Shown here: piece by piece, positions 1 to 34,687 of the stretch
Layout of the letters: every line of letters begins with the position of its first letter
How positions within the stretch are numbered: the first letter of the stretch is position 1
Origin: Cyclobacteriaceae bacterium
GTDB taxonomy: Bacteria; Bacteroidota; Bacteroidia; Cytophagales; Cyclobacteriaceae
Direction: 5' to 3'
Assembly (NCBI GenBank): GCA_026129485.1
Contig: JAHCHY010000015.1
Coordinates: forward strand, 1 to 64,000
DNA length: 64,000 nt
The notes under the pieces: model-generated
What the model was told of the DNA's origin: nothing
Seen by the model: the letters and a program-made list of their open reading frames with translations, nothing else
Database searches by the model: none
Program-made: the position numbers and the translations under genes

Positions 1-454
1 TGCTTCTGAGCTGGTTAGCCGGGGGGCCGAGCCGCATACCATCGCACAAAAAATTTACGATACCAATTCGCTGGAGCGATTACGCCTGACGGGCTATGTG
101 CTGAGCGAAAAGTTAGTGGTGCTGCCCGCATATCACACCGCTTACATGACGTTGAGCCAGGAAGAGCTGAAAAAATTTGGCGCCCAGACGGGAGATACCG
201 AAGGCCTGGTAAACTATGGGCTCTCTATAAAAAATGTGAAGATGTCGGTGCTCATGTACGACCGTAAAGAAGAGATCAAGCTTTCGTTCCGGTCGTTGGG
301 CAATTTTTCGGTAAACGAGCTGGCCCGAAAACATTTTGAAGGCGGTGGCCACCGGAATGCATCGGGCGGAACATCCAAGCTTTCGCTGGAAGAAACATTG
401 AAAAAGCTATTAAGCGTGCTGCCGGAGTATCAGCAGCAATTGAACAAAGATTAA
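1..454 (+). CDS. nrnA: DHH-family phosphoesterase, 3' end (NrnA-like)
   Basis: This is the C-terminal part of a DHH/DHHA1 phosphoesterase. The reading frame is open from the first complete codon at position 2, so the start lies outside the window, and the GTG near 98 is internal. The visible part carries the DHHA1 substrate-binding domain ending in the glycine-rich GGGHRNASGG motif about 30 residues before the stop. Family members (NrnA) degrade short oligoribonucleotides and dephosphorylate pAp in the cytosol. The downstream neighbour is an FKBP lipoprotein 26 bases away on the same strand. The family call is firm. The exact substrate is inferred because the DHH catalytic half is not visible. 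Confidence 0.85.
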   Translation, partial: ASELVSRGAEPHTIAQKIYDTNSLERLRLTGYVLSEKLVVLPAYHTAYMTLSQEELKKFGAQTGDTEGLVNYGLSIKNVKMSVLMYDRKEEIKLSFRSLGNFSVNELARKHFEGGGHRNASGGTSKLSLEETLKKLLSVLPEYQQQLNKD

Positions 455-18339: not shown

Positions 18340-20199
18340 ATGAGGGCCATTGGTATCGTGTTGTGCTTATTCGTTTGCGCCAGTAAGGGTTACGCCCAGA
18401 AGCCGGTAGTAATAAGCGATACGGTTAAGCAGCACATATTTGCATTTAGCGAGATAGAATTTTTTGAAGACCCGGCCGGCCGGCTTACCATACACGATGT
18501 TACATCAGCGCCTGCCAACAGCCGGTTTAAGCCCAGCGTTAGCTTTAATCCTGAAAATGTAAACCGCAAATCAGCCTACTGGCATCGTATAAAAATTAAC
18601 CACCACCCAACCGAAAAAGAATGGGTGATTGAGTTTTTTGATCAAACCATAGATCGTATAGATTTTTTTGTTCCTGAACAGAACGGCACTTATAGGCACG
18701 TAACGTATGGCGATTTGTTCTCATTTCCCGCCCGCCCGCTGGAGCATAAGAATTTTGTAATTCCCATTGATAATGATGCGCCCGGTGAGAAGATCTATTA
18801 CTTCCGGATAGAATCGCAGCAGCAGGCCGAAGCTATTGTAGTGCTGCGCTCCAGCAACTACCTGTTTGAGTACGCCATTGACGAGTATTTCCTTTTCGGG
18901 ATTTTTTATGGAATGATACTCGTATTCTCTTTTTATAACCTGCTGATGTATGCAGCCGTACGCGAGAGCCACTACCTGTTTTATATCCTGTACCTGGTGA
19001 GCATCGGGTTGTACGAAATGAGCGCGGATGGCATCGGGTTCCAGTACCTGTGGCCGGATGCTATAACATGGAATCAATATGCCCCGGGCCTTACCATGTA
19101 TATGGCCTCTACCGCTTCGTTGCTGTTTGCCGTTTCGGTCTTAAACCTTCGTACCGAAGTGCGATGGCTATGGAAGCTGATCTGTGGCGCATTTATTTTC
19201 CGCACGGTATTTTTACTGGCCAGCATTTTCTTATTCCAGTCGTGGTTCAGCTTTCGGGTAATTGAGCTGGTGCCTTTTTCAGTTACTTTTTTTGCAGCTA
19301 TCTACCGGTGGCGCAAGGGGTATTCGGCTGCACGCTTTCTTGTTATCGGCTATTCCTTCCTGCTGTTTGGCGCTATCTCTAAAGTATCGTTGTATTTCGA
19401 TTTTTCGTGGATGCCCTTTGGCAAGCTTTCGCATTACGGCCTCAGCTTTTGCTTTATCATGGAAATGATATTCCTGTCATTCGCGATAAGCGATAAGATA
19501 CGGATGCTTCGTATAGAAAGGGCCGAGGCGCAGGACAGGATAATTGAGCAGTTGGAGATTAACCAGCAGCTAAAGGATAACCTGAACCGTGAGCTGGAAG
19601 AGCAGGTTAAAATAAAAACAAGAGCGTTGGTTGTAGCTAACCAGCAGCTTTCGCGGCAGGCCGATGAAATTGCGGCTATGAATGCCTTGCTCACCAAAGA
19701 CAATATCCAGTTGCAGCACGATGTGGCCGAGGTAAAAGAGGCGCGGGTTTTATCCAAGGAGGTTGACTTTGAGGAATTCAGCGCCATGTACCCGGACGAT
19801 GAAAGCTGCCTCAGGTTTTTGGCCGAAGCCAAATGGCAGCATGGGTATGTGTGCCAGCATTGCAGCCATACTACTTATAGTGCAGGCAAAGCCGCTTACA
19901 GCAGGCGGTGTTCCCGGTGCGGGTACGATGAGTCGGTAACAGCCCACACCATATTGCAAGGTACCCGGCTGCCTATCAATAAAGCTTTTTATATGATATT
20001 CCTGGTGTATTCCACACGGGGCAGGATATCTTCACACAAGCTTTCGGAAATACTGCACATCCGGCAAAGCACGTGCTGGTCGTACAGCTCAAAGATCAAA
20101 AAAGCGATCAGGGAGAAACGCAAGCACGGACATTTGCATACTGCCGAAGGCTGGAAATCCATTCTTATTGAAGAAAGAGCCCCTGAACTGCATACCTGA
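18340..20199 (+). CDS. 7TMR-DISM sensor fused to IS1595-type zinc ribbon
   Basis: The 619-residue protein starts at the ATG before MRAIGIVLCLFVCASKGYAQ, a signal peptide, and the TTG 36 bases upstream is rejected. Residues about 21-180 form an extracellular beta-rich domain of the 7TMR-DISMED2 type (AYWHRIKINHHPTEKEWVIEF). Seven transmembrane helices follow (about 190-395), then a coiled coil (about 400-480). The last 140 residues match the N-terminal region of IS1595-family transposases: MYPDDESCLRFLAEAKW, a zinc ribbon with C505, C508, C524, C527, and GTRLPINKAFYMIFLVYSTRGRISSHKLSEIL. The DDE nuclease is absent. It sits just upstream of a SusC/D locus and is likely a membrane-tethered DNA-binding regulator, which is inference. 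Confidence 0.85.
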   Translation: MRAIGIVLCLFVCASKGYAQKPVVISDTVKQHIFAFSEIEFFEDPAGRLTIHDVTSAPANSRFKPSVSFNPENVNRKSAYWHRIKINHHPTEKEWVIEFFDQTIDRIDFFVPEQNGTYRHVTYGDLFSFPARPLEHKNFVIPIDNDAPGEKIYYFRIESQQQAEAIVVLRSSNYLFEYAIDEYFLFGIFYGMILVFSFYNLLMYAAVRESHYLFYILYLVSIGLYEMSADGIGFQYLWPDAITWNQYAPGLTMYMASTASLLFAVSVLNLRTEVRWLWKLICGAFIFRTVFLLASIFLFQSWFSFRVIELVPFSVTFFAAIYRWRKGYSAARFLVIGYSFLLFGAISKVSLYFDFSWMPFGKLSHYGLSFCFIMEMIFLSFAISDKIRMLRIERAEAQDRIIEQLEINQQLKDNLNRELEEQVKIKTRALVVANQQLSRQADEIAAMNALLTKDNIQLQHDVAEVKEARVLSKEVDFEEFSAMYPDDESCLRFLAEAKWQHGYVCQHCSHTTYSAGKAAYSRRCSRCGYDESVTAHTILQGTRLPINKAFYMIFLVYSTRGRISSHKLSEILHIRQSTCWSYSSKIKKAIREKRKHGHLHTAEGWKSILIEERAPELHT

Positions 20200-20302: not shown

Positions 20303-20336
20303 AAACGATTGCGTTGGTAAGGCGTATCAATCGTTT
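20303..20336. promoter_or_regulatory. Inverted repeat upstream of susC, possible operator
   Basis: AAACGATTG (20303-20311) and CAATCGTTT (20328-20336) form a perfect 9-bp inverted repeat with a 16-base gap. The sequence GCGTATCA occurs within it and again near 20399. It lies in the 316-base gap between the sensor fusion and susC, about 130 bases before the candidate promoter. It could be the binding site of the upstream regulator or a hairpin. Confidence 0.4.
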
Positions 20337-20440
20337 TCTATACACCTGGCAATACCTTCCAAATGCTTCAAAAAACATGGATATGGGTTTGCGACTGAAG
20401 CGTATCATTTTTTGTAACTATCTACTTGTCAGCATGTTAT

Positions 20441-20515: not shown

Positions 20516-23449
20516 ATGAAGAAAACACTACAACTAACATTGGTTCTGTGGTTTGCTGTGCTGGCAGGTGCCGCTGCACAGGACAGAACGGTGTCTGGAA
20601 AAACCGTTGCGCAGGGTGGCGAACCCTTGCCCGGTGTGAATGTTCTGGTGAAGGGCACCAACAACGGAACAACTACGGATGCCACAGGAAACTTTACTGT
20701 GGGCGGGCTGTCGGAAAACAGTGTGCTGGTATTCAGCTTTATCGGCTACAAGACACAAGAGGTGTTGGTAGGTAGCCGGTTGGTGCTGGAGATAACGCTG
20801 GAAGAGGATGTTACGGCTTTGGGTGAAGTAGTGGTGATAGGCTATGGAACCCAGCAAAAGAAAGACATTACCGGGGCGGTTACGGTTGTAGGCAAAGAGG
20901 CTATGGAGTCAAGGCCCAATACGCAGTTCGGTAACCTGATCCAGGGCAAAACGGCCGGTGTGCAGGTGCTGTCATCATCGGGTAAGCCTTCGGCAGGATT
21001 CAGCATGCGCATACGAGGTACCAGCTCCATATCCGGAAGCAGCGAACCGTTGTATGTGGTGGATGGTGTTATCTCGCAGGATACGCGCACCATTAACCCG
21101 GCCGACATTGAAAATATTACTGTGCTGAAAGACGCATCATCGGCCGCTATTTACGGTGCGCAGGGCGCTAATGGCGTAGTGCTGATCACCACCAAGCAGG
21201 GTTCAAGCGCCAAGCCCCGGTTTGAGTTTGGCGCTTATACGGGTTTTGCATCGGTATGGAAAACATTGCGTGTGCTGAATGCCGAACAATACCGCGACCT
21301 GATGACCGAGATGGGACAAAGCACGGACTGGAGCCAGTACACAGCTAACACCGACTGGCAAAATGAAATTTTCCAGAACGGCCGCTCTCAAAACTACCAG
21401 TTCTCCGTTTCGGGAAAGAACGATAAGACAACCTACTACCTTTCCGCAGGATGGATGCAGCAGAAAGGTGCGGTGCGCTCTTCCGAAATGGATCGTTACA
21501 ACTTCAAGGTAAACCTGAAGCAATATGTAAATGATAAGCTCGCTATCGGAACCAACCTGAATTATTCTCGCTACCATGATGTGGACGTTAGCGATAATAC
21601 AAACGTAAACAGCGGAGGTGTAATATTGGGAGCCCTTACTTCTCCGGCCAACATTGGCATTTACAACGAGGATGGAACCTTTACGCGCAACCCGTTTCAG
21701 GATTGGGAAAACCCGGTGTCTGCTACCGATGGATCGGATCGCGGCTACACCAACCAGCGTGTGCTGGGTAATGTGTATGCCGAGCTGGATGTGATTGAAG
21801 GCTTGCAGTTCAAAAGCAACCTGGGTATTGATTACATCATGGGCATTTACGATTACTTCCTCGATCCGTTCAGAACGAGCTATGGCCGTGCACGCCAGGG
21901 TATTGCCCGGAATACGACCAGCCTGACGAACTATTACATTTTTGACAATACACTTACTTACCGCAAAGTAGCGGGTGAGCACAACTTCAGCGCACTGGCC
22001 GGTACCGTAATTCAAAAAACACGGTGGGAGAACAACGCAATAGAAACCAACGGGTTTTCAGGCACATCCGTGCCTACCACCGGTGCAGGCTCTACCATCT
22101 TGTCGGCCAGCAACGATAAGGCAGAAAAATCCAATGCATCGTTCATCAGCCGGGTTACGTATGATTATGCCGGCAAGTATTTGCTTACCGCCAACTTCCG
22201 TGCGGATGGTTCTTCTGCCTTTGGTCCTAACAAGCGGTGGGGATATTTCCCGTCTGCTTCCGTAGGCTGGCGTATTTCGCAGGAGAGCTTCTTCCCTGCG
22301 GTTGATGTCATCAACGATTTAAAAATTCGTGCAGGCTGGGGTATGGTAGGAAATGATATCGGCAGCTATGCTTACCTCGGTTTGGTGGGCACGGGAGCCA
22401 ACTACCCGATAGGCAGTGAAATATTGCCCGGCAGCTATCCTTCTACTATTCAGAATAATGATTTGAAGTGGGAAGCTACCCAGCAAACCAACATAGGCAT
22501 TGATGTAACCGTGCTGAATAGCCGCATTACATTTTCAGCAGACGCCTACATCAAGAAAACATCTGACCTGCTGCTGTATGTGCCGCTGCCCAAATCAACC
22601 GGCTTCGACACCGGTTTGCAAAATGTGGGCGACATCGAAAACAAGGGTCTGGAGTTCGTAGTGTCCAGCAAGAACCTGACCGGTGCATTGCAGTGGGATA
22701 CGGATTTTAATATTTCATTCAATCGCAACAAAGTGATTAATGTAATCGGCAGCCAGATCACAGGCGGTGCTGTGGCAGGTCGTGGTGATGTGAGCTTATC
22801 GCGCGAAGGCCATCCGCTGGGTATGTTTTACGGATACATAGGCGGAGGAGTTGATCCTGCAACCGGGAATTACTACTATATCAGGAGCAATGGTGAAAGC
22901 ACATTCACACCATCTGCTGATACGGATCGTACATTTATCGGTAATCCTAATCCGAACTTTATTTTCGGGCTAACCAATAATTTCTCTTACAAGAATTTTA
23001 GCCTGAGCATATTCCTGCAAGGCTCCCAGGGCAACGATATCTTCAATGCTACCAAAGTGGAGATGGAGGGGATGAACGATGCCAAAAGCCAGGCACACTC
23101 GGTAATAAACCGTTGGCGTGCACCGGGCGATGTAACCAGCATACCTAAAGCCACTCCTAACAGTGCAGCCAATTCGCAAATATCTACGCGGTTTGTAGAA
23201 GACGGCTCGTATCTGCGGGCAAAGGCCGTTACGCTTTCATACAACGTACCTTCATCCGTTCTGCAGAAAGCTAATCTCGGTACGCTTAAGCTTTATGTTA
23301 CAGGCGAAAACCTGTTTACCATTACAAGCTATTCAGGACTTGACCCTGAAGTGAACGCATTTGGCGGCAGCAATACGGTACAAGGTGTTGACTTTGGCAC
23401 CTACCCGCAAACGCGTAACCTCATTATCGGATTGAACTTAACATTCTAA
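20516..23449 (+). CDS. SusC-like TonB-dependent outer-membrane transporter
   Basis: The 977-residue protein begins with MKKTLQLTLVLWFAVLAGAAAQ. The upstream extension is rejected because it would lack a usable signal peptide. After the signal come a CarboxypepD_reg-like domain (VSGKTVAQGGEPLPGVNVLVKG, about 25-110), a plug (ALGEVVVIGYGTQQKKDITGAV, then MRIRGTSSISGSSEPLYVVDG), and a beta-barrel to the C terminus (NLIIGLNLTF). It imports oligosaccharides bound by its SusD partner, powered by TonB. It heads an operon with susD, a susE-like gene and two GH30 genes. Confidence 0.95.
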   Translation: MKKTLQLTLVLWFAVLAGAAAQDRTVSGKTVAQGGEPLPGVNVLVKGTNNGTTTDATGNFTVGGLSENSVLVFSFIGYKTQEVLVGSRLVLEITLEEDVTALGEVVVIGYGTQQKKDITGAVTVVGKEAMESRPNTQFGNLIQGKTAGVQVLSSSGKPSAGFSMRIRGTSSISGSSEPLYVVDGVISQDTRTINPADIENITVLKDASSAAIYGAQGANGVVLITTKQGSSAKPRFEFGAYTGFASVWKTLRVLNAEQYRDLMTEMGQSTDWSQYTANTDWQNEIFQNGRSQNYQFSVSGKNDKTTYYLSAGWMQQKGAVRSSEMDRYNFKVNLKQYVNDKLAIGTNLNYSRYHDVDVSDNTNVNSGGVILGALTSPANIGIYNEDGTFTRNPFQDWENPVSATDGSDRGYTNQRVLGNVYAELDVIEGLQFKSNLGIDYIMGIYDYFLDPFRTSYGRARQGIARNTTSLTNYYIFDNTLTYRKVAGEHNFSALAGTVIQKTRWENNAIETNGFSGTSVPTTGAGSTILSASNDKAEKSNASFISRVTYDYAGKYLLTANFRADGSSAFGPNKRWGYFPSASVGWRISQESFFPAVDVINDLKIRAGWGMVGNDIGSYAYLGLVGTGANYPIGSEILPGSYPSTIQNNDLKWEATQQTNIGIDVTVLNSRITFSADAYIKKTSDLLLYVPLPKSTGFDTGLQNVGDIENKGLEFVVSSKNLTGALQWDTDFNISFNRNKVINVIGSQITGGAVAGRGDVSLSREGHPLGMFYGYIGGGVDPATGNYYYIRSNGESTFTPSADTDRTFIGNPNPNFIFGLTNNFSYKNFSLSIFLQGSQGNDIFNATKVEMEGMNDAKSQAHSVINRWRAPGDVTSIPKATPNSAANSQISTRFVEDGSYLRAKAVTLSYNVPSSVLQKANLGTLKLYVTGENLFTITSYSGLDPEVNAFGGSNTVQGVDFGTYPQTRNLIIGLNLTF

Positions 23450-23460
23450 AAGTAACAGAC

Positions 23461-24939
23461 ATGAAATCGATATTGAAAACCACATTGGCCGTATGTGCCC
23501 TTGTAACATTAGCTGCCTGTGAAGACTTTCTTGATCTGAAGCCGATATCAAGCATAACCGCAGAAAACGCCTACAATACGGCCAGCGATGCAGAAGCCGC
23601 TTTAATTGGCGCCTACGATTCTTTTTCGCAGGAATATTATATCTGGGACAACGTGCTCTTTAACGATGTGCTTTCCGATAATTATTATGCCGGTGGCGAT
23701 AACCCGGAGATTTTCCAGATCGATGACCTGAACATTACCCCGCTTAACAGCCGCCTGTTTAATAACTGGAGCCAGATTTACAACGCTATCTTAAAAGCCA
23801 ATACCGTGCTGGACAAAGTGCCGGGCATTACCGATGCCAAATTAGATGTGGATAACCGCAAGGCCCAGATTTTGGGCGAAGCATCTTTCCTGAGAGCCTA
23901 CCATTACTATCAATTAGTGAAAATGTTTGGCGGAGTGCCGTTGGTTATCCAGGCATCCAGCTCAACGGATCCTTCTGAAACGCAGAAGACGAGAGCCAGC
24001 GTGGCAGAAATATACGCGCAGGTTATAGCTGATCTTGAATTTGCCATCGCCAACCTGCCCGATACGTACGGCAGCGATGCATCCACAAACAAAGCCCGTG
24101 CTACCAAAGGCGCGGCCAACGCGCTGATGGCAAAGGTGCAGGCACAGAAGCCCAACCGGGATTACAGCAAAGTGCTTGAACATTGCAATGCCGTTATCAG
24201 CAGCAGCGCGGGTTACCAGTTGCTTACCGATTACACACATCTATGGGATGGTAACCACTACAACAATGCAGAGTCTATCCTGGAAGTGCAGTTTGTAGGA
24301 AGCACCGAAGCCAACTGGGGCCCTCAGTTGCTGTTGCCGCCTTCCATCAGTGGCGATAGCTGGCGCAAGTTTGTAACACCTTCGCATAACCTGGTAAATG
24401 CATTTGATAGTGAAGGCGATAATGTGCGTAAGAATGCCAGCGTTTTATTTGAGAGCGTAAACTGGGTGGACGAATTCTGGTCGGCCACTACCGGTGGTAA
24501 TGTGCCGTTTGCCTATAAATGGAAATCGGCCAACGGCTGGGCCAGCACCAACCGCCAGTACATCCTGCGCCTCGCTGATATTATTCTGCTTAAGGCCGAA
24601 GCATTGAATGAAACTAACCAGTTGGAATTAGCCCGTGCCGAAGTTAATCGTATTCGCAGCCGGGTAGGGTTAGACCCGACCACCGCTACCGATAAAGCAT
24701 CTATGGCGCTTGCCATTGAGAAAGAGCGAAGGCTGGAGCTTTGCCAGGAAGCACAACGGTGGGACGACCTGGTGCGCTATGGCAAAGCGGTAACCACCAT
24801 GAACAGCCTGATCGAGGTGAACCTGCTTACAGGCGATACCAAGAGCTTTAACATGACAGAGAACAAAATTCTTTTGCCCATTCCGCAATCGGAGCGCAAC
24901 CGGAATCCAAGCTTAGGTCAGAACCCCGGTTACAACTAA
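23461..24939 (+). CDS. SusD/RagB-family glycan-binding lipoprotein
   Basis: The 492-residue lipoprotein has lipobox LAAC (Cys20), then the SusD N-terminal helical repeats (EDFLDLKPISSITAENAYNTASDAEAALIGAYD), FLRAYHYYQLVKMFGGVPL, and the C-terminal RLADIILLKAEALNE...EVNRIRSRVGL and IEKERRLELCQEAQRWDDLVRYG. It forms the lid of the SusC transporter at the cell surface and captures the glycan. It lies 11 bases after susC. Confidence 0.95.
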   Translation: MKSILKTTLAVCALVTLAACEDFLDLKPISSITAENAYNTASDAEAALIGAYDSFSQEYYIWDNVLFNDVLSDNYYAGGDNPEIFQIDDLNITPLNSRLFNNWSQIYNAILKANTVLDKVPGITDAKLDVDNRKAQILGEASFLRAYHYYQLVKMFGGVPLVIQASSSTDPSETQKTRASVAEIYAQVIADLEFAIANLPDTYGSDASTNKARATKGAANALMAKVQAQKPNRDYSKVLEHCNAVISSSAGYQLLTDYTHLWDGNHYNNAESILEVQFVGSTEANWGPQLLLPPSISGDSWRKFVTPSHNLVNAFDSEGDNVRKNASVLFESVNWVDEFWSATTGGNVPFAYKWKSANGWASTNRQYILRLADIILLKAEALNETNQLELARAEVNRIRSRVGLDPTTATDKASMALAIEKERRLELCQEAQRWDDLVRYGKAVTTMNSLIEVNLLTGDTKSFNMTENKILLPIPQSERNRNPSLGQNPGYN

Positions 24940-24948
24940 TAATAAGAA

Positions 24949-26730
24949 ATGGAAAAAATTAACGTAAGAAATATGAAACACTACCATAGCTTACCGGCAT
25001 TCATGATGATCCTGATGCTGGCATGGTCTTGCGGTGAAAAAGATAACCTCGATCCGCTTGGCGAATGGAGCATGACAGCCCCCGTGCTGGCCACACCGCA
25101 AGCCGGAACCGACATTATACTGGATGAAAGTACGCCATCCGCAAAGTATAAATTTGAATGGCAGGCAGCCGTTACCAGCAACCGGTTTGTGGTGCAATAC
25201 ACGTACTTGCTGGTGCCGGCCGGCAGCACGGATTATCTTAACCCGCTGCTTTCTGTTACACCGGCCAACTCCGGGCGAAATAATTTTATAGAGATTACAG
25301 CAGACCAGGTTGATTATGCGCTGTGGGTAAAATGCTATCCGCCCGGGGCGAAGGTCAACCTCACCTGGGTGGTGATCGCCAAAGTGATTGATCGCACGGA
25401 AACCGTTACACAAAACATAGCGTTCACACGCTTTGAAACCGAGCGCATACCACCGGCCTTATACCTATATGGCACCGGCACCGAAGCAGGCGATGATCTG
25501 GCTCATGCCACCCGGTTGCGTGCCCGCAAAAATGCCGATGGCGAGCTCACCGGCATATATGATGTATATACCACTTTAACCCAGGGCGGCACTTACCAGT
25601 TCCGCGACCTGCCGAATGCAGCATCCAAACTATTTGGCGGTGAAAGCGGAACCATAGCAGGTTGCGGCCCTGCCATTATTGCTCCTGAAGCAACAGGTGT
25701 GTATCGTATAGTTGTAAACCTGGAAACAAACGAGTACGAGCTGCTGCCCATTGAAAAGTGGAGCCTGGTAGGCGATGCCGTGGAAGGCGGATGGGGTGGC
25801 GATGTGCCGTTGCCTTATAAAGGAAATGGCGTGTGGGAAGGAAAGATAAACTTTGTGAATGCCGCTAATTTCATTTTCCGCGCCAATGGCGACTGGGGTT
25901 ACATTATCAAGCGTATTCAGGGTACGGCCAATGCAGCCAATACAGGCGGCCGGGTAATTATGGAATCGGAAGCGGGTGATGCAGGCGTTACTTTCCAGGA
26001 TGTGCCCGCACCGCTTTCCGGTATGCACACAGTAACGCTTAATTTGTCGGCAGACGGTTATACTTACCTGCTGGTATCTGATGTGCCAACACCTGATCCT
26101 GTAGCGGTGATTGGCGAGTCGCCCAATCCGAATGGCGACCAGGTAGGCGGTAATTTTGACTTTGGTGAATATGACACACCCGACCAGTTGTTCCTGGTGC
26201 ACAACGGTACAGCCGTGGCGGAGCTTACCAAAAACGGAAACATATTTGAATCCGGCAAATTCCTCGCGCTGGAGGCAAGCAAAACATACATTGTGAACTC
26301 GGCCAGCGATGGTTCGGGAACCACGTACAATGAGTTGACGGATGACGGCTCCATTGCGGTAGCCCGCGACCAGGCTTACCAGATCACTGTAAACTTTGAA
26401 ACCGGGAAGCTGATCTGGAAATACCGTAACATCAAGCTTTTCCATTGGGATGATGCCGGTGGCGGATGGGATGCGCGGCAGGAAATAGTCATGACATACG
26501 AGCATCCCTATACTTTTAAAGTTGCAGGAGCATCACTTTCGGCAGGCTTTGATTCCAAATTCAATTCACCGTGGGAAGTGCAATTTGGAACAGGCGACAT
26601 GACGCTTACCGGCACCATGACAAACGGTGGCCCTAACTATAAAGGCATTGTTTCATCAGGTACCTATAATGCTACTATTGTGATAAGCGATACCTACGAA
26701 TCCTGTACCTACACATTTGTAAAACTATAA
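24949..26730 (+). CDS. SusE/SusF-like surface glycan-binding lipoprotein
   Basis: The 593-residue protein has a lipoprotein-type signal (FMMILMLAWSC) and an N-terminal SusE-like immunoglobulin fold, followed by repeated beta-sandwich modules that resemble CBM domains of SusE/SusF (EKWSLVGDAVEGGWGGDVPLPYKGNGVWEGKI at about 260, and KLFHWDDAGGGWDARQE at about 505). The family binds glycans on the outer face and has no enzymatic activity. Start codons at 24949 or 24973 are possible. The first is kept. It follows susD by 9 bases. Confidence 0.85.
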   Translation: MEKINVRNMKHYHSLPAFMMILMLAWSCGEKDNLDPLGEWSMTAPVLATPQAGTDIILDESTPSAKYKFEWQAAVTSNRFVVQYTYLLVPAGSTDYLNPLLSVTPANSGRNNFIEITADQVDYALWVKCYPPGAKVNLTWVVIAKVIDRTETVTQNIAFTRFETERIPPALYLYGTGTEAGDDLAHATRLRARKNADGELTGIYDVYTTLTQGGTYQFRDLPNAASKLFGGESGTIAGCGPAIIAPEATGVYRIVVNLETNEYELLPIEKWSLVGDAVEGGWGGDVPLPYKGNGVWEGKINFVNAANFIFRANGDWGYIIKRIQGTANAANTGGRVIMESEAGDAGVTFQDVPAPLSGMHTVTLNLSADGYTYLLVSDVPTPDPVAVIGESPNPNGDQVGGNFDFGEYDTPDQLFLVHNGTAVAELTKNGNIFESGKFLALEASKTYIVNSASDGSGTTYNELTDDGSIAVARDQAYQITVNFETGKLIWKYRNIKLFHWDDAGGGWDARQEIVMTYEHPYTFKVAGASLSAGFDSKFNSPWEVQFGTGDMTLTGTMTNGGPNYKGIVSSGTYNATIVISDTYESCTYTFVKL

Positions 26731-26870: not shown

Positions 26871-26892
26871 TTTTTACTGATTTTCATTGCTC

Positions 26893-28308
26893 ATGAATCG
26901 TTTTCGTAATTCCATCTGTGCGCTGTTAGCATTAAGCATGGCTGCGTGCTCCGGCTCTAAAAAAGAAACAGTTGCCACTGGAGATGTAGAGCTGTGGCTG
27001 ACTACCGGAGATCGTACCCATTTGTTTGAAAAAGTTGCCGGCCCCCTGTTTGCCGACATTGAGTTTAAAGGCCCTGTAATTGAAGTGGATACTTCGGTTA
27101 CGTATCAAACTATGGACGGGTTCGGTTACTCGCTTACAGGCGGAAGCGCCTATCATATTAATCAAAAGCTGGATTCGGCAACTCGAAGCAAGCTGTTGCA
27201 CGAGTTGTTTTCTACTGAGGGAAACAGCATCGGTATCAGCTACCTGCGTATAAGCATTGGCGCATCCGACCTGGACGATCATGTTTTTTCGTACAACGAT
27301 CTTCCGAAAGGACAGGTTGATCTGAAGTTAGAGAAGTTTACGCTGGATGAAGACCGTAAAAATCTTATTCCCGTGCTGAAACAAATTTTAGCCATCGATC
27401 CATCGATTAAAATTATGGGTTCGCCCTGGTCTCCGCCAGCCTGGATGAAAACCAATAACAGTCCGAAAGGCGGCTACCTGAAGCCTGAATACTATTCCGT
27501 GTATGCTGCTTACCTGGCAAGGTATATTCAGGAAATGGCTAAGGAAGGAATCACCATTGATGCTATTACTTTACAGAATGAGCCGGAGAACCCCAAGAAT
27601 AATCCAAGCTTGTTAATGACGGCTGAGCAGCAGGCTGAATTTATCAGGGATCATGCAGGCCCGTTGTTCAGGCAACAAGGCATTGCTGCCAGGATTGTAT
27701 TGTTCGATCATAACTGCGATCACCCGGAATACCCGATTACCGTGCTTAATGATCCGGAAGCTCGCCAATACGTGGACGGATCAGCTTTCCATTTATACCT
27801 CGGGGAAATTGAAGCGCTTACCAAAGTGCATGACGCGCATCCTGATAAAAATTTGTACTTCACAGAACAGTGGACATCGCCACAAGGAACATTTGACGGT
27901 GATTTGCGCTGGCATGTACGCAATCTTGTTGCAGGAGCGCCACGCAACTGGAGCCGTGTTGTTTTGGAATGGAATCTTGCAGCCGATGCGGACTTTCAGC
28001 CGCACACCGACCAAGGCGGTTGCACCGAATGCCTCGGTGCGCTTACCATCCAGGATTTATCGGTAACACGTAATGTGGCTTATTATATTATTGCACATGC
28101 CTCCAAATTTGTGCGGCCGGGTTCAGTGCGGGTACAATCTAATATTGTTGATGATTTATATAATGTAGCGTACTTAACGCCATCGGGTAAGCGTGTGCTG
28201 GTTGTAGTGAATGATTCTGATGAAGAAAAAAGATTTGCTATTGCATACAAGGGAAAAAAGGCGGAAACTATTTTGCCGGCTGCATCGGTTGGTACGTATG
28301 TGTGGTAG
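26893..28308 (+). CDS. GH30 glycoside hydrolase lipoprotein, copy 1
   Basis: The 471-residue protein uses the ATG at 26893 (a TTG 6 bases earlier is less likely). The signal ends SMAAC with Cys19. GH30 features are clear: QTMDGFGYSLTGGSAYHI, IMGSPWSPPAWMKTN, the acid/base in LQNEPENP (E230) and the nucleophile in LYFTEQW (E325). The C-terminal beta-sandwich ends with VVVNDSDEEKRFAIAYKGK. Family members cleave beta-1,6-glucan, glucosylceramide or xylan. Beta-1,6-glucan is the best guess with a SusC/D partner. It lies after the repeat element in the operon. Confidence 0.92.
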   Translation: MNRFRNSICALLALSMAACSGSKKETVATGDVELWLTTGDRTHLFEKVAGPLFADIEFKGPVIEVDTSVTYQTMDGFGYSLTGGSAYHINQKLDSATRSKLLHELFSTEGNSIGISYLRISIGASDLDDHVFSYNDLPKGQVDLKLEKFTLDEDRKNLIPVLKQILAIDPSIKIMGSPWSPPAWMKTNNSPKGGYLKPEYYSVYAAYLARYIQEMAKEGITIDAITLQNEPENPKNNPSLLMTAEQQAEFIRDHAGPLFRQQGIAARIVLFDHNCDHPEYPITVLNDPEARQYVDGSAFHLYLGEIEALTKVHDAHPDKNLYFTEQWTSPQGTFDGDLRWHVRNLVAGAPRNWSRVVLEWNLAADADFQPHTDQGGCTECLGALTIQDLSVTRNVAYYIIAHASKFVRPGSVRVQSNIVDDLYNVAYLTPSGKRVLVVVNDSDEEKRFAIAYKGKKAETILPAASVGTYVW

Positions 28309-28336: not shown

Positions 28337-29803
28337 ATGAAGCGTGTGTGGAATGGTGCAACAGGATTATTTCTTTCAGGTGCTTTACTTTTCTCTTTAG
28401 CAGGATGTAAAAAAGACGAGCCGTTTAATCCCGGCCCGCCTAAAACACCGGAAGAAATCGGGAAAGCATCGGTATATCTGACTACGGGGGATAAGAATAA
28501 ATTATTCAGTGCAGAGCCGGAGATTTCCGTTGTGGAAACTACTTCTGCTGCGGTAACATCCCTGATTACGATAGATGCCGGCCAGAAGTTCCAGCAGATC
28601 GATGGCTTTGGTGCGGCCCTCACAGGCTCATCGGCCTATCTCATTAACAAGAAAATGAGCTCTGTACAGCGCGATGCCCTGCTCAATGAGCTGTTCAACC
28701 CGGAAACGGGCATAGGTGTTTCTTACCTGCGCATGACCATCGGGGCCTCGGATTTTTCATTGTCTGACTTTACCTATAACGATATGCCAACCGGCCAGCA
28801 GGATTTAACGCTGGCCAGCTTTACGATTGATGCGGATAGGGAAGATGTGATCCCGGTTTTTAAACGGATATTAAACATAGCACCGGGTATAAAAATTATG
28901 GGCTCGCCCTGGAGCGCCTCGGCCTGGATGAAAACCAACGGAAGCCTGAAAGGCGGTGAGCTGCGCACCGAAGTTTATAATGTGTATGCGAACTATTTTG
29001 TAAAATACATCAAAGCGTACGCGGCTGAGGGCATTACCATTCATGCCGTTACACCACAGAACGAGCCTTTGCACTTTACCGCCAATTATCCGTGCATGAG
29101 CATGCCCGCATCGGCACAATTGGATTTTGTGAAGAACCATCTCGGGCCGGTGTTTGAATCTGAGAATATCAATACAGAAATTATCCTGTACGATCATAAC
29201 TGGGATAATACCGCGTATGCCATTTCGGTTTTAAATGATGCCAATGCCAAAAAATATGTAGCGGGTACAGCCTTTCATGCCTATGGCGGTTCGGTTTCGG
29301 CTATGAGCACGGTGCGCAACGCCCATCCCGACAAGGGGCTTTACTTTACCGAGATTTCCGGTGGAGGCTGGGCTACCAACTTTGGCGATAACCTGATGTG
29401 GAACATGGAGAATATTTTTATCGGCACTACCAATAACTGGTCAAGGAATGTGCTGCTCTGGAACCTGGCGCTGGATCAGAACGATGGCCCGACCAACAAC
29501 GGGTGCTCCAATTGCCGGGGTGTGGTTACCATAAATAATAATACAGGATCGGTTACCAAAAATGAAGAGTATTATTCTATAGCGCACTTTAGCAAGTTTG
29601 TAAGACCCGGGGCATCCAGAGTTTCATCCCAGGCAACGGGTGTTTCACAGTTTCACCACGTGGCTTTTATCAATACCGATGGAACAAAGGTTTTGGTGGT
29701 AGCGAATAGCAGCACCAGCTCACGCACATTCACAGTACGCGAAGGTGGTAATCAATACTCGTATGATATTCCCGCAAAGGCAGTGGCTACGATAGCCTGG
29801 TAG
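28337..29803 (+). CDS. GH30 glycoside hydrolase lipoprotein, copy 2
   Basis: The 488-residue protein has a lipoprotein signal (FSLAGC, Cys24) and the same GH30 layout as its upstream neighbour: KFQQIDGFGAALTGSSAYLI, IMGSPWSASAWMKTN, the acid/base in TPQNEP (E243) and the nucleophile in LYFTEISGGGW (E339), then a beta-sandwich (VLVVANSSTSSRTF). It is a diverged tandem duplicate, and differences around the nucleophile suggest distinct linkage or chain-length preference. It is the last gene before a bidirectional terminator. Confidence 0.92.
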   Translation: MKRVWNGATGLFLSGALLFSLAGCKKDEPFNPGPPKTPEEIGKASVYLTTGDKNKLFSAEPEISVVETTSAAVTSLITIDAGQKFQQIDGFGAALTGSSAYLINKKMSSVQRDALLNELFNPETGIGVSYLRMTIGASDFSLSDFTYNDMPTGQQDLTLASFTIDADREDVIPVFKRILNIAPGIKIMGSPWSASAWMKTNGSLKGGELRTEVYNVYANYFVKYIKAYAAEGITIHAVTPQNEPLHFTANYPCMSMPASAQLDFVKNHLGPVFESENINTEIILYDHNWDNTAYAISVLNDANAKKYVAGTAFHAYGGSVSAMSTVRNAHPDKGLYFTEISGGGWATNFGDNLMWNMENIFIGTTNNWSRNVLLWNLALDQNDGPTNNGCSNCRGVVTINNNTGSVTKNEEYYSIAHFSKFVRPGASRVSSQATGVSQFHHVAFINTDGTKVLVVANSSTSSRTFTVREGGNQYSYDIPAKAVATIAW

Positions 29804-30011: not shown

Positions 30012-31505
30012 TTATAGTGGGTTTTGCACCGCAGCCCTATTGGCATCCAGTTCGGCACGCGGAATAAGATACTCCCACCGCACGTCCCCGGCCGGCACAT
30101 CAAACAAGCCAGCTACTACAGCCGAAATGAAGTTGGCACCGTTGCGGTTAAGCGGCAGGTTCAACCGCTTCAGGTCGAAGAACCGGAAACCCTCACCCCA
30201 TAATTCTATTCTTCTCTGAAGCAGGATCTCATCGATAAGGGCCGCACCCGTATTGGTAGACAATACATAGTTAGGGTCGCGTGCGCTTACTAATGTAAAC
30301 AACGTATTTTGTGCGGCTGCTTCCTTGGCTCCACCCTGGCGCGCCTGCGCTTCGGCTTCGATCAAATACATTTCAGAAGCTCTCATATAAACAACATCGC
30401 CCGGAAAACTGGTGGAAGGGGCTGCTGCTTCAAGCCTGAACTTTTGCACCATGTACTGAGGCTTAATACCTCCGGGAGGGGCAATTGTATTTGGATCGTT
30501 TGCTGTAGCTGCCCACATTAGCTTTCTGACATCGGTAGCCGGAATTTGATCGTACAGTGCGCTGTTAACTGTTTTGGGGGTTTGCCTATTAACCGTTGAG
30601 TTAAAATTACAGGACATGTATTGATGAAATCCCCAGAAAAATGTGGTATGAACTTCCAAATGATCAACTCCCCACATCCATTCTCCAACAGTAATGTTTG
30701 AAAAACCCCCCTGGTATTCAGCGGGAGTCATCAACGGAACACCCTGACGGGCCTCATTGGCTAATGTTTCTGCCAAAGCCCAGTTCTGCTGAACAAGGGC
30801 AACCCTCGCCTTCAAACCTTTGGCCACTTCTTTATCAGGATGTGATTTATTTACGGGTGTTGACGGCAACAGGGCAATCGCCTGATCCAGGTCAGCATTG
30901 ATTTGTAAATACACCTCTTCAACTGTTGCCCGGGGTTGTCCTTCCAGAATAGGCTCTAACACAAGCGGAACACCCAACTGGGTGTTGGTAGTGCCAGCTA
31001 CATACCGTTTACCATACATTTGCACTAAGTTAAAATAAGCCCAGCCCCTCAAGGCATGAACTTCACCCAGTAACCGATCCCTGTCTGCCTGCAGCCCTGC
31101 GGCATTAGGTATATTCAGAATAGCCATATTGGTATTGGCGATTACCCGGTAATACATCCGGTAGGGATGGGTTGTAGAAACATTATTGTCGGTTCTGTGG
31201 CCAACCCACCTGACATCCGTTAAGTTCCAGGCATTGGTGGTATTGGGTAAAACCACGTCATCGGCCATAAGATCCCATATATACAGTTGGGCCGGGTGAT
31301 TGGCATGCCCCTGGTCTCCACCGGTAACCTGGGAGTACAGCAGCCTGTATATACCATTTACGGCAGCCTCGGCATTTTTAGTTGTTAAAAATGCCGCACT
31401 GGCATCAACAAGATTAGTAGGTGCCGTGTCTAAATAGTCCTCACCACACGATAACGTGAAGAAAGAAAGCGCAACAAAGAGAATAGCTGAAATTTTATTT
31501 TTCAT
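30012..31505 (-). CDS. SusD/RagB-family lipoprotein (second system)
   Basis: The 497-residue lipoprotein starts at MKNKISAILFVALSFFTLSC (Cys20), two codons inside the longest frame. SusD features include EDYLDTAPTNLVDASAAF, EVHALRGWAYFNLVQMYG, and DVVYMRASEMYLIEAEAQARQGG with LLQRRIELWGEGFRFFDLKRL near the end. It pairs with the SusC gene 15 bases upstream. It binds an unknown ligand, since no enzyme gene accompanies this pair on its strand. Confidence 0.94.
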   Translation of the reverse strand: MKNKISAILFVALSFFTLSCGEDYLDTAPTNLVDASAAFLTTKNAEAAVNGIYRLLYSQVTGGDQGHANHPAQLYIWDLMADDVVLPNTTNAWNLTDVRWVGHRTDNNVSTTHPYRMYYRVIANTNMAILNIPNAAGLQADRDRLLGEVHALRGWAYFNLVQMYGKRYVAGTTNTQLGVPLVLEPILEGQPRATVEEVYLQINADLDQAIALLPSTPVNKSHPDKEVAKGLKARVALVQQNWALAETLANEARQGVPLMTPAEYQGGFSNITVGEWMWGVDHLEVHTTFFWGFHQYMSCNFNSTVNRQTPKTVNSALYDQIPATDVRKLMWAATANDPNTIAPPGGIKPQYMVQKFRLEAAAPSTSFPGDVVYMRASEMYLIEAEAQARQGGAKEAAAQNTLFTLVSARDPNYVLSTNTGAALIDEILLQRRIELWGEGFRFFDLKRLNLPLNRNGANFISAVVAGLFDVPAGDVRWEYLIPRAELDANRAAVQNPL

Positions 31506-31519
31506 AACCATTATAATTT

Positions 31520-34500
31520 TTATAGTGTTATAGAAGCTCCGAAAACCAAGCTCTTGGCAGGGCTATATACGTTACTGGTTGTACCGTCATAGTTCTGCTG
31601 CACATTCATACCCTTCCTCTTCGATTTAAACAAAAGGTTTTCACCGCTAATGTAGAATTGTGCCCTGCTTAAGAATATTTGATTAGCCCATTTATTGGGA
31701 AGGTCATACGAAAACGTTAAAGAACGAATGTTCAGGTAGCTCGCATCAATCAGCCACCGGTCGGATTGAGCATTATAATCGGCTGTGCGACCATCATCCA
31801 TACGGGGAACGTTGGTAACATCGCCCGGGTTACGCCACCTGTTCAGGATATCCACGTGCTTGGCGCTGCCAAATCCACCGGACCCCATCAGGCTGGCATA
31901 AGCCCCGTCATATACCTTGCCGCCAATCTGGTAAACCACTACTGCCGAAAGTGAGAAATTCTTATACCGGAATGTATTGGTAAACCCTCCTGATACCTTA
32001 GGAATGGAAGTTCCGGCATAGTGAAAGCGGCCATTGGATTGAGAGTTCGTTACGGTATCGCCCGCTTCATTTACAAACGAGTTGGCAGGATTCCATACAT
32101 CAGCACGGTAGAGCACATCTCCGTTTGCGGGGTTTATACCCATGTACTCCCTTAACCAGAAATCATACCTTGACTGGCCCTCTTTCAATTTTTTGGTACC
32201 GTCAATAATTTCTTTTGATTCTTCAGGCATCTTGGTGATTTCGTTTTTAATTTTTGTGGCATTCACATCCAATTGCCATGAGAAATCGCCCAGCTTCAGT
32301 ACTTCAGCGCCTAAGCTCACTTCGATACCACGATTCGCCATCCTGCCAATGTTTTGAGTAACAGTTGCTACACCTGACGAAAGGGGCATGGGAACAGCAA
32401 AAAGCAGGTTTGACGATGCCCGGTTAAAATATTCAACCGTTCCTGTAATGCGGTTTTTGAGCACACCAAATTCCAAGGCTACATCTGAAGCATCGCTGGA
32501 TTCCCATGATAGATCCCTGTTGCCGAGGCTGCCTTGTAAAATTCCGGGTTCAAGGGCATTATCCCAACCTAAGCCATAAACTGGTTGCCATGCGTAGTAG
32601 CTGATACTGGTACCTGCACCGCCATCATTACCCGTTTGACCATAAGATGCCCGGAGCTTTAACTGGCTGATGGCAGGAATGTTCTGGATGAAAGCTTCCT
32701 GGTCTAATCTCCACGCACCGCTTACAGACATAAATGTACCCCATTGTACATCTTTACTGAATTTACTTGACCCGTCTCTTCTGACAGAAAATGAAGCGAA
32801 GTACTTCTCGTTGAAATCATAGTTTATACGCGAAAAATATCCCTCCAAACGGTACCTGTCCAGGTAACCATTACCACTTGTTAAAGTAGCAAAGTTGGGA
32901 AGTTCAATATTCCCCTCCAGTGACTGCTGTGATTTTGATACCGTTAAAAAATTTGCGCGTCTGTCATAGTTCTCATGTCCCAACAAAACCGAAACATTGT
33001 GCACACCAAAAGACTTGGTATAATTCAACAGTTGATTCAAATTGAAGGCGGTATTGTTATCAAACCGATGCGTTGTACGACCGGCCGGTGCACCATCCCC
33101 AACTTCCGGGTTGCCGAAGGTTACGTTGTTCTGGTTGGTTATATCCAATCCAACATTCGTGGTAAACCTAAAATCCTTCAAAAAAGAGATTTCCATGTAA
33201 CCACGGGTGTTCAACGCATTTCTTCTAAAGAAATCCTCGTTTAATTCAGTTTCGGCAATGGCATGACGGCCACCATACTGGGGGCGGTTAGGCAACCCCA
33301 ATGCCGACATGTTTCCATAGTCGTAGAATTTTTCACCGTCACGCAGCAAAAACGATCCGGGATTTGCCGGGTCATGTGCATAGACGGGGAAAATAGGCCC
33401 CATACCTCTTGAGAAGAAGAAAGGGTTAACAAACGTAGTCCCTCCGTCAGCGGCAGACTGTCTTGATTCAGTGAATGTTGTTGACAGATTACCACCCGTC
33501 TTAAGCCATTTTTTAAGCTGGGTGTTATAGTTCATCCGGGCTGTGTATCGGTTATAATCTGATTTTATCTGGTAACCCTGGTCATCCAGGTAGGCCAGCG
33601 AAATAAAATAATCCGACTTATCGGTAGCACCGGAGAAGCTTAAATTCAACTCATCCCTGTTACCCCGTCTCATAATGGGAGCTTCCCAATCCAAATCGCT
33701 TTGGCTATATAAAAGTCTTGCATTAGGATTCAGCACCCCGTTTGCGTCTACTAATTGGTTAAACGGAACATCGTAAACATTATAGTGGGCATTCGCCCCT
33801 AACGTTGCCGTGGCATTGGCACCTGCCGTTGGTAAATCCTGGGCGGATGGTCCGTAAGCTAAATTATTCCGAAGCATTTCCCATATCAGCGGGTAATAAT
33901 CAGCAGGGCCTACACGATCATACTCCGGCATCCCCCGTGTACTAAAGCCTTTTGTATAACGGAGATTGATAGATCCGTTTTTATCTTTTCCCTTTTTAGT
34001 TGTGATCATCACCACCCCGTTGGCAGCACGTGCCCCGTAAAGGGAAGTCGAAGCGGCATCTTTCAATATCGTCATGGTTTCGATATCGGCCGCATTAAAG
34101 TTGGCGATGCTTTCATTATAGGGCACACCATCCACAACATATAAAGGGGCATTGGTTGCAGTAATTGAACCGAAACCACGAATCCGTACATCTGGTGCTA
34201 CCCCGGGCTGACCAGTACCTGCAGTGGTTGTAACACCAGCCGTTGAACCTGCAATGGCTGCAACAGCATTACTGAGCGGGCGTGCAGCTATATTCTCAGC
34301 ATTAATCTGTGAGAATGACCCGGTGAAAGAAGATTTTTTTACTTCACCAAAGGTAGTAACAACGACTTCGCCTAATTGTACAATATCAATATCTAATGCT
34401 ACATCTAATTGTGTACGTTGGCCTACAAGAACCTCTTGTGTTTTCATACCAATAAATGTAAATACTAATACTGCATCAGACTGTACAGATAGCGCATAGC

Positions 34501-34687
34501 TACCATTTGCATCAGTAGCCGTACCCATGCTTGTACCTTTAATCACCACGCTTACCCCGGGAAGTGGTGAACCGTCCTCGGCTGACGTTACCTTACCGGT
34601 AACCGTCCTCTCCTGTGCCCATGCTACACTCGTTATTAGCATAACGAACAGTAGCGCGAACCTTTTCGCTAAGTAAATTTGCTTCAT
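31520..34687 (-). CDS. SusC-like TonB-dependent transporter (second system)
   Basis: The 1055-residue protein has a signal peptide (LLFVMLITSVAWAQ), a CarboxypepD_reg-like domain (VTGKVTSAEDGSPLPGVSVVIKG), a plug domain (LGEVVVTTFGEVKKSSFTGSF, VRIRGFGSITATNAPLYVVDGVP) and a long barrel ending LVFGASITL. It is only distantly like the first SusC in the plug region. It heads a two-gene operon with the SusD gene, converging on the first operon. A canonical promoter lies just upstream. Confidence 0.95.
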   Translation of the reverse strand: MKQIYLAKRFALLFVMLITSVAWAQERTVTGKVTSAEDGSPLPGVSVVIKGTSMGTATDANGSYALSVQSDAVLVFTFIGMKTQEVLVGQRTQLDVALDIDIVQLGEVVVTTFGEVKKSSFTGSFSQINAENIAARPLSNAVAAIAGSTAGVTTTAGTGQPGVAPDVRIRGFGSITATNAPLYVVDGVPYNESIANFNAADIETMTILKDAASTSLYGARAANGVVMITTKKGKDKNGSINLRYTKGFSTRGMPEYDRVGPADYYPLIWEMLRNNLAYGPSAQDLPTAGANATATLGANAHYNVYDVPFNQLVDANGVLNPNARLLYSQSDLDWEAPIMRRGNRDELNLSFSGATDKSDYFISLAYLDDQGYQIKSDYNRYTARMNYNTQLKKWLKTGGNLSTTFTESRQSAADGGTTFVNPFFFSRGMGPIFPVYAHDPANPGSFLLRDGEKFYDYGNMSALGLPNRPQYGGRHAIAETELNEDFFRRNALNTRGYMEISFLKDFRFTTNVGLDITNQNNVTFGNPEVGDGAPAGRTTHRFDNNTAFNLNQLLNYTKSFGVHNVSVLLGHENYDRRANFLTVSKSQQSLEGNIELPNFATLTSGNGYLDRYRLEGYFSRINYDFNEKYFASFSVRRDGSSKFSKDVQWGTFMSVSGAWRLDQEAFIQNIPAISQLKLRASYGQTGNDGGAGTSISYYAWQPVYGLGWDNALEPGILQGSLGNRDLSWESSDASDVALEFGVLKNRITGTVEYFNRASSNLLFAVPMPLSSGVATVTQNIGRMANRGIEVSLGAEVLKLGDFSWQLDVNATKIKNEITKMPEESKEIIDGTKKLKEGQSRYDFWLREYMGINPANGDVLYRADVWNPANSFVNEAGDTVTNSQSNGRFHYAGTSIPKVSGGFTNTFRYKNFSLSAVVVYQIGGKVYDGAYASLMGSGGFGSAKHVDILNRWRNPGDVTNVPRMDDGRTADYNAQSDRWLIDASYLNIRSLTFSYDLPNKWANQIFLSRAQFYISGENLLFKSKRKGMNVQQNYDGTTSNVYSPAKSLVFGASITL

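What the first reader, a model, noticed from the sequence alone, without database searches (positions are those of the whole stretch)
18340..20199. 7TMR-DISM receptor fused to an IS1595-type transposase zinc ribbon, next to a Sus locus
One 619-residue protein joins a signal peptide, an extracellular DISM-type domain, seven helices, a coiled coil and, at its C terminus, the N-terminal DNA-recognition region of IS1595 transposases (C505, C508, C524, C527 and the GTRLPINKAFY segment). The DDE nuclease is absent, so the transposase part appears domesticated as a reader. The position directly upstream of a SusC/D/E-GH30 operon suggests a one-protein, membrane-tethered regulator that differs from the usual hybrid two-component or ECF control. 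Sequence directly shows the domains. The regulatory role is inferred.
Basis: partly seen in the sequence, partly recalled or inferred. Interest (0 to 1): 0.8.

Follow-up and report, generated by a model that had tools for sequence, protein, structure and literature searches.

The report
Membrane sugar sensor with transposase DNA-reader
A bacterium carries a membrane sensor protein whose gene-reading end was taken from a jumping-gene enzyme; close relatives in other bacteria sit beside genes for digesting beta-glucans such as those of fungal cell walls, often next to a repeated DNA signal that is its likely binding site.

Summary
Confirmed, and broader than claimed. The 619-residue protein is DISMED2 + 7TM + coiled coil + an IS1595-type zinc ribbon (over Pfam's cut-off); the transposase helix-turn-helix is kept too, the DDE nuclease is missing. 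It is a family: 80 relatives fetched, nearly all full length; 129 of 291 genomes of the order match the C-terminal domain. Among 81 loci, GH30-cluster genes (endo-beta-1,6-glucanase-like) occur in 75 and SusC is the next gene in 41 (7 of 1141 other genes). In a tree, 45 regulators form one clade (99/90) beside IS1595 transposases; the domain is also joined to a propeller sensor. What is conserved is a direct repeat of GCGTATCA, usually 78-92 bp apart: with one mismatch allowed in 40 of 41 REG-susC gaps (exact in 17; resampled sequences 1 of 4100). The exact pair occurs once in the own genome, here; in relatives pairs also precede unlinked GH30 and GH5 genes. Best reading: a one-component membrane-tethered regulator of beta-glucan loci, made from a transposase. 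Binding, ligand and sign of regulation are untested; 22 of 81 loci show no pair, and paralogue groups gave no significant tandem motif.

The parts
18340..20199 (+). regulator gene, 619 aa: signal peptide, DISMED2, 7TM, coiled coil, IS1595 zinc ribbon + HTH
18340..18396 (+). signal-peptide-like N terminus (residues 1-19)
   Evidence: hydropathy window 1-19; no signal-peptide program was run
18451..18846 (+). 7TMR-DISMED2 domain (38-169); modelled fold matches the RetS periplasmic domain
   Evidence: model pLDDT 91.2; Foldseek 3jyb E 1.9e-7, TM 0.74/0.81, and 2xbz E 1.6e-7
18883..19497 (+). 7TMR-DISM_7TM membrane domain (182-386)
19498..19764 (+). long helical, coiled-coil-like linker (387-475)
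   Evidence: sequence pattern; no coiled-coil program was run
19792..19926 (+). zinc ribbon PF12760, ligands C505 C508 C524 C527 (485-529)
19975..20124 (+). helix-turn-helix (modelled helices 546-558, 565-572, 576-595)
   Evidence: AlphaFold model pLDDT 89.8; profile matches transposase N termini; partial NCBIfam IS1595 match 542-597
20321..20329 (+). candidate operator copy 1, GGCGTATCA
20399..20407 (+). candidate operator copy 2, AGCGTATCA, 78 bp from copy 1
   Evidence: exact pair found once in the own genome
20464..20471 (+). TATATTTG, fits the Bacteroidota -7 promoter consensus TAnnTTTG (consensus recalled), 64 bp after copy 2
20516..23449 (+). SusC-like TonB-dependent transporter
   Evidence: Plug and CarbopepD_reg_2 over cut-off; frame
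23461..24939 (+). SusD-like protein
24949..26730 (+). SusE-position surface protein
   Evidence: position and a 6-member cluster; Pfam SusF_SusE only E 0.6
26887..28308 (+). GH30, endo-1,6-beta-glucanase-like
   Evidence: NCBIfam BT3312 model 384 bits over its length, below its cut-off of 700
28337..29803 (+). GH30, best solved relative 5ngk
   Evidence: E 1.9e-96; 5NGK is BT3312 (PMC5481569, passage)

Best explanation
A one-component, membrane-tethered transcription regulator of a beta-glucan (probably fungal beta-1,6-glucan) utilisation locus. The RetS-like DISMED2 domain senses an oligosaccharide in the periplasm (inferred). The signal passes through seven helices and a coiled coil that pairs the cytoplasmic ends (inferred). 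Each end is the DNA-recognition half (zinc ribbon + helix-turn-helix) of an IS1595 transposase, captured once (tree). It binds the tandem GCGTATCA operator upstream of the susC promoter (in relatives also of GH30, GH3 or GH5 genes) and most likely activates it (binding and sign inferred; operator and its gene associations shown).
For: Architecture. Profile match to transposase N termini over ribbon and HTH, six of seven candidate frames, 52-121 bits, and one regulator clade of 45 rows, 99/90. Confident ribbon + HTH model; 21 of 57 invariant columns of the full protein lie in residues 485-605. Linkage: SusC next on the same strand in 41 of 81 nearest relatives vs 7 of 1141 other genes, GH30 cluster in 75 of 81 loci (Fisher 2e-46); in a second set 17 of 43 regulator-like genes (41 with the domain) vs 1 of 364 (1.5e-17). 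Operator: 40 of 41 gaps with one mismatch allowed (17 of 41 exact) vs 1 of 4100 Markov-resampled sequences; over whole loci 59 of 81, before SusC in 37, GH30 in 19, another first gene in 3; once in the own genome; in 20 relatives' genomes 12 strict pairs, 9 between regulator and SusC or GH30 and 1 before an unlinked GH5; in one genome whose regulator stretch holds no GH30, 2 of 4 pairs lie before GH30 genes elsewhere.
Against: No binding, ligand or expression data. 22 of 81 loci show no pair in the fetched stretch, and of 10 genomes searched among those 7 have no exact pair. The strict pattern was absent from 10 of 20 genomes and its reversed control hit 3 times against 12; the exact pair hit 18 times in 295 genomes against 3 for its reversed control, 17 of the 18 away from any regulator. 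Paralogue groups show no tandem motif beyond chance: hym 3 of 17 (null mean 4.7), own2 4 of 5 (null up to 5), flam 4 of 6 (null up to 5). Related intergenic regions are not independent. A histidine kinase with a probable response regulator lies directly upstream in 18 of 80 relatives, and a related pair lies 13-14 predicted genes upstream in the window. 18 of 40 distant-member stretches hold no SusC. Foldseek found no significant solved relative of the DNA-binding model (best E 0.79).
Confidence: 0.76

Rival explanations
1. The operator is bound by another factor (a response regulator, ECF sigma factor or global regulator); the 7TM protein works through protein contacts and its zinc ribbon-HTH is a non-DNA protein-binding remnant.
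For: Nothing measured links protein and motif. A histidine kinase (profiled) with a probable response regulator (not profiled) lies directly upstream in 18 of 80 relatives, and a related pair lies further upstream in the window. [quoted passage not shown]
Against: That pair is not in the fetched stretches L003-L012, of which L003-L012 all hold the operator. Ribbon and HTH hold 21 of the 57 invariant columns. None of the 17 other exact pairs in the class lies beside the SusC or GH30 profiles.
Confidence: 0.14
2. It is a repressor: the tethered domain holds the promoter silent until glycan binding releases it.
For: Nothing here decides the sign; DNA-binding regions can repress by occupancy (general knowledge).
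Against: Copy 2 lies some 64-91 bp upstream of the likely -7 element where one is seen, a position more usual for activators (general knowledge).
Confidence: 0.2
3. A chance or recent read-through fusion, or assembly chimera, of a receptor gene with a broken insertion sequence.
For: The C terminus is transposase-like.
Against: 80 relatives in other genomes, nearly all full length, a second intact copy in the same genome, invariant zinc ligands.
Confidence: 0.01

Closest known systems
7TMR-DISM receptors (RetS, LadS, RgsP)
   Same: DISMED2 and 7TM domains over Pfam cut-offs; DISMED2 model matches RetS
   Different: known outputs are kinases, cyclases, GGDEF and the like (recalled; RgsP and SagS papers seen as listing only; PMC1592074 passages name 7TMR-DISM without a zinc ribbon); here the output is a transposase DNA-binding region
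IS1595 / ISXO2 transposases
   Same: zinc ribbon and HTH; L155 matches the domain profile with 121 bits
   Different: no DDE nuclease; fused to a membrane sensor and linked to a locus
SusR-type PUL regulators, e.g. BT3309 of the B. thetaiotaomicron 1,6-beta-glucan locus
   Same: same place, regulator before susC-susD-GH30 (PMC5481569, passages); membrane one-component logic (recalled)
   Different: the paper calls BT3309 SusR-type; its sequence was not compared here
Hybrid two-component systems (HTCS)
   Same: L131 and L142 carry the HTCS-type sensor (Reg_prop, Y_Y_Y) with this output domain
   Different: no HisKA, HATPase, receiver or AraC domain in either (E up to 0.01) nor in the window protein
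ECF sigma / anti-sigma control of glycan loci
   Same: serves a Chitinophaga pinensis fungal cell-wall locus (PMC10449523, passages)
   Different: no sigma or anti-sigma domain in the window protein
ChiS, membrane-bound DNA-binding regulator (PMC8092284, listing only)
   Same: membrane-held protein that reads DNA for glycan use (recalled)
   Different: different DNA-binding domain and sensor (recalled)

Membership tests
7TMR-DISM receptor | 7TMR-DISM_7TM domain | tested here: met
   3.3e-41
7TMR-DISM receptor | DISMED1 or DISMED2 extracellular domain | tested here: met
   DISMED2 1e-32; RetS fold
7TMR-DISM receptor | a known intracellular signalling module (kinase, cyclase, phosphatase) | tested here: not met
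   none in Pfam to E 1
IS1595 transposase | zinc ribbon PF12760 | tested here: met
   27.4 bits, cut-off 25.4
IS1595 transposase | DDE nuclease PF12762 | tested here: not met
   no match; NCBIfam IS1595 only positions 2-58 of 215
IS1595 transposase | terminal inverted repeats round the gene | not tested
   no search for them was made at the window gene
Hybrid two-component system | HisKA, HATPase, receiver and AraC domains | tested here: not met
ECF sigma / anti-sigma PUL control | sigma-70 or FecR/anti-sigma domain in the protein | tested here: not met
   the upstream neighbours were not profile-scanned
SusR-type regulator | sequence relation to SusR | not tested
   no SusR or BT3309 sequence was fetched
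Sequence-specific transcription factor | binding to the candidate operator | not testable with these tools
   needs EMSA or ChIP

The most novel reading that the evidence does not exclude
One capture of the DNA-recognition half of an IS1595 transposase founded a widespread, modular class of transmembrane one-component regulators in Bacteroidota. It was attached to 7TMR-DISM and also to propeller sensors, spread over beta-glucan loci, where it stands in the place of SusR, and reads a tandem operator that may itself descend from transposon ends (one related element's end begins AGGCGTTTA, operator copy 1 AGGCGTATCA).
Probability: 0.55. Interest if true: 0.87.

Novelty: new variant of a known kind. 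Interest (0 to 1): 0.79.

Why it matters
Control of polysaccharide loci in Bacteroidota is usually ascribed to SusR-type, hybrid two-component or sigma/anti-sigma systems (general knowledge). This would be a further class, with a candidate operator that makes its regulon searchable and testable at once. It would also be a clear bacterial case of a transposase's DNA-binding half turned into the output of a membrane receptor, and it predicts controllers of beta-glucan (fungal cell-wall) digestion in Pedobacter, Mucilaginibacter, Chitinophaga and Chryseolinea relatives.

Tried and rejected
Inverted repeat 20303-20336 as operator: not conserved. Tandem motifs in paralogue groups: seen by eye in the flam group, not above chance when tested, so not claimed. 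Transposon ends as source of the operator: one element only (L155); L160, L166, L199 and L205 have other ends, so left as speculation. First tree (93 rows) gave no regulator clade (7 changes for the DISM rows); six regulator rows there had under half of the columns filled because I had taken the first, not the best, matched stretch. The second tree (75 rows) took the best stretch; I also dropped seven transposase rows (L194 and L197 as duplicates; L202, L205, L212, L213, L214), four SHORT rows, near-duplicate regulators (L126, L127, L128, L140, L147, L152) and L187 (the window copy). Of its 28 rows labelled transposase, 11 are the G759 copies. Its root is midpoint only, and it has few columns. 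First own-genome operator pattern asked for a spacer one base too long and found nothing; replaced. A note in the notebook gives 5 reversed-control hits and 18 loci without a pair; recounted these are 3 and 22. Foldseek for the DNA-binding model gave nothing significant; sequence search of solved structures with the domain gave E 0.27 or worse. Literature searches (listings, partly cut to the best 10-40) showed no paper on this architecture in the held open-licence library; subscription papers are not in it.

Full report
OBSERVATION. The window gene 18340-20199 (+) encodes 619 residues. Pfam places 7TMR-DISMED2 at 38-169, 7TMR-DISM_7TM at 182-386 and Zn_ribbon_IS1595 at 485-529, each over its curated cut-off. 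The four cysteines are C505, C508, C524 and C527. NCBIfam's IS1595 transposase model aligns below its cut-off and only over positions 2-58 of 215, at residues 542-597: the helix-turn-helix after the ribbon is retained and the DDE nuclease is absent. Downstream lie SusC, SusD, a SusE-position protein without a significant profile, and two GH30.

IT IS A FAMILY. A second gene of the same architecture lies elsewhere in the genome. A scan of species genomes found 110 relatives of the full protein; the best 80 were kept and are nearly all full length, L012 and L071 being cut by contig ends. In 129 of 291 genomes of the order the C-terminal domain has a match at E up to 0.001, often in several copies; some of these may be true transposases. 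In 296 genomes drawn over the phylum 43 match, many of them in transposase-length frames. In 20 full-length proteins the zinc ligands and the segment KAFY are invariant, and 21 of the 57 invariant columns lie in residues 485-605; in 32 domain rows the four cysteines are invariant.

ORIGIN OF THE OUTPUT DOMAIN. The domain profile was run on seven candidate frames of 250-420 aa from the IS1595-transposase loci; six matched, with 52 to 121 bits (E 2.3e-17 to 1.5e-38 for a set of seven), over ribbon plus HTH. L155 and L227 carry PF12762, the DDE domain. In a tree of 75 rows the 45 regulator rows are one side of a branch, support 99/90, with transposase rows (L155, L227 and the G759 copies) as neighbours under a midpoint root. 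An earlier tree with mis-cut rows did not show this (see Tried and rejected). L131 (1068 aa) and L142 (997 aa) join Reg_prop and Y_Y_Y, the sensor of hybrid two-component systems, to the same ribbon. They fall in different places of the tree, though forks there are open, so the output domain has been used with a second kind of sensor. L131 is followed by SusC and SusD.

STRUCTURE. The AlphaFold model of the domain (pLDDT 89.8) has short strands at the ribbon and three helices after it. Foldseek found no significant solved relative (best E 0.79); the weak matches include zinc-ribbon ribosomal proteins and HTH regulators. The DISMED2 model (pLDDT 91.2) matches the RetS periplasmic domain (3jyb, E 1.9e-7, TM 0.74/0.81); a carbohydrate-binding module, CBM28, follows at E 6.5e-4 with a low TM of 0.30, level with a phage tailspike.

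LINKAGE TO BETA-GLUCAN LOCI. In 81 loci (80 relatives plus the window) SusC is the next gene on the same strand in 41, against 7 of 1141 other genes; the GH30 cluster occurs in 75 and within five genes in 74; L010 and L055, both on short stretches, show neither GH30 nor SusC nor SusD (Fisher p 2e-46). Further neighbours profiled include GH16, GH3, GH5 and GH97. In 40 stretches round more distant members, chosen by me from the list for contig length and spread, 17 of 43 regulator-like genes are followed by SusC, against 1 of 364 other genes (p 1.5e-17); two of the 43 (in L130 and L136) lack the domain. 18 of the 40 stretches hold no SusC at all. SusC, SusD and the like were called there with profiles built from the loci themselves. 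The window GH30s resemble the B. thetaiotaomicron endo-1,6-beta-glucanase BT3312: 5ngk, E 1.9e-96; NCBIfam BT3312 model 384 bits, below its cut-off of 700. In that species the locus is led by a SusR-type regulator, BT3309, and is induced by pustulan (PMC5481569, passages).

CANDIDATE OPERATOR. In the 41 regulator-SusC gaps the commonest 8-mer is GCGTATCA, in 37. Two exact copies 70-100 bp apart occur in 17 of 41; with one mismatch allowed, in 40 of 41, against 1 of 4100 Markov-resampled sequences. Spacing is 78-81 in the window and L003-L009 and 88-92 in the other loci, but for L040, scored at 100 with an alternative of 90; L082 is the exception. Over whole loci, with AGCGTATCA and one mismatch, 59 of 81 show a pair: before SusC in 37, GH30 in 19 and another first gene in 3. 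L018 and L032 have a further pair before GH3 and L034 before another SusC; L044 and L064 have three further pairs without a known target; 22 loci show none. The exact pair occurs once in the own genome, at this place. Of 18 exact pairs in 295 genomes of the class (3 for the reversed control) it is the only one beside a regulator and SusC; 16 of the other 17 lie under frames of 200 codons or more. A strict pattern in 20 relatives' genomes gave 12 pairs in 10 genomes (3 for the reversed control): 9 lie between regulator and SusC (5) or GH30 (4), 1 before an unlinked GH5 gene, 1 inside a SusC gene and 1 without a known neighbour. Of 10 genomes whose loci had no pair, 3 had exact pairs, 7 in all, with no control hits. 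In G889, whose regulator stretch (L046) holds no GH30 and only a distant, opposite SusC, 2 of 4 pairs precede GH30 genes elsewhere and the other 2 overlap open frames. In G890 pairs flank a further regulator copy on both sides, an exact one before an alginate-lyase-family gene and one with mismatch before SusC. The two pairs of G892 were not examined. A TAnnTTT element follows copy 2 at 64-66 bp in 7 of 40 gaps and at 89-91 bp in 27 (L017 in both); L006-L008 show none, and the fuller TAnnTTTG is present in 9 of 40.

MECHANISM. Shown: architecture, transposase kinship, linkage, the tandem motif and its association with the target genes. Inferred: export of the N terminus, binding of a beta-gluco-oligosaccharide by DISMED2, pairing through the coiled coil, binding of the tandem sites, and activation. 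The position upstream of the promoter element favours activation.

NOVELTY. Membrane one-component regulators, DISM receptors and IS1595 transposases are known; their combination, its spread and the candidate operator were not seen in the searches, which cover an open-licence library only and were read as listings. I file it as a new variant of a known kind: a further class of one-component regulator of polysaccharide loci.

Noticed in passing
L216-L226 (G759; 11 of at least 13 copies fetched): One genome of the class holds at least 13 (the search scored only 13 candidates) diverse 306-339-aa frames with this DNA-binding domain and an IS1595-like second half in which, by eye, the VDEFFVGG start seen in L155 and L227 is lost. 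L216 still passes the Pfam DDE and NCBIfam IS1595 cut-offs, but the Pfam match starts at position 25 of 153. L225 has a 25-nt inverted repeat round it; the others gave no convincing one. Possibly amplified, nuclease-dead transposases; in ten neighbourhoods no SusC was directly next to the gene, and no systematic partner search was made.
   Followed up: partly
L196 (G757) and L198 (G795): Near stand-alone copies of the DNA-binding domain (151- and 189-aa frames) without sensor; L196 branches next to the regulators.
   Followed up: partly
L250 (G890:C9:570000-580000): A regulator copy flanked on both sides by operator-like pairs, one before SusC and one before an alginate-lyase-family gene, so the same motif may serve a different glycan.
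   Followed up: partly
L113 (own genome, C5:82000-101000): The second regulator of this genome leads SusC, SusD, a laminin-G-like protein and a PF10091 glycoamylase-family gene, so a different glucan locus is likely.
   Followed up: partly
regulator-SusC gaps, some 20-45 bp after operator copy 2: A further conserved stretch with TATCAG, and TTATCAG-like elements between the two copies in several loci; seen by eye, role unknown.
   Followed up: no
window 30012-34687 (-): A second SusC/SusD-cluster pair on the opposite strand, convergent with the GH30 operon.
   Followed up: no
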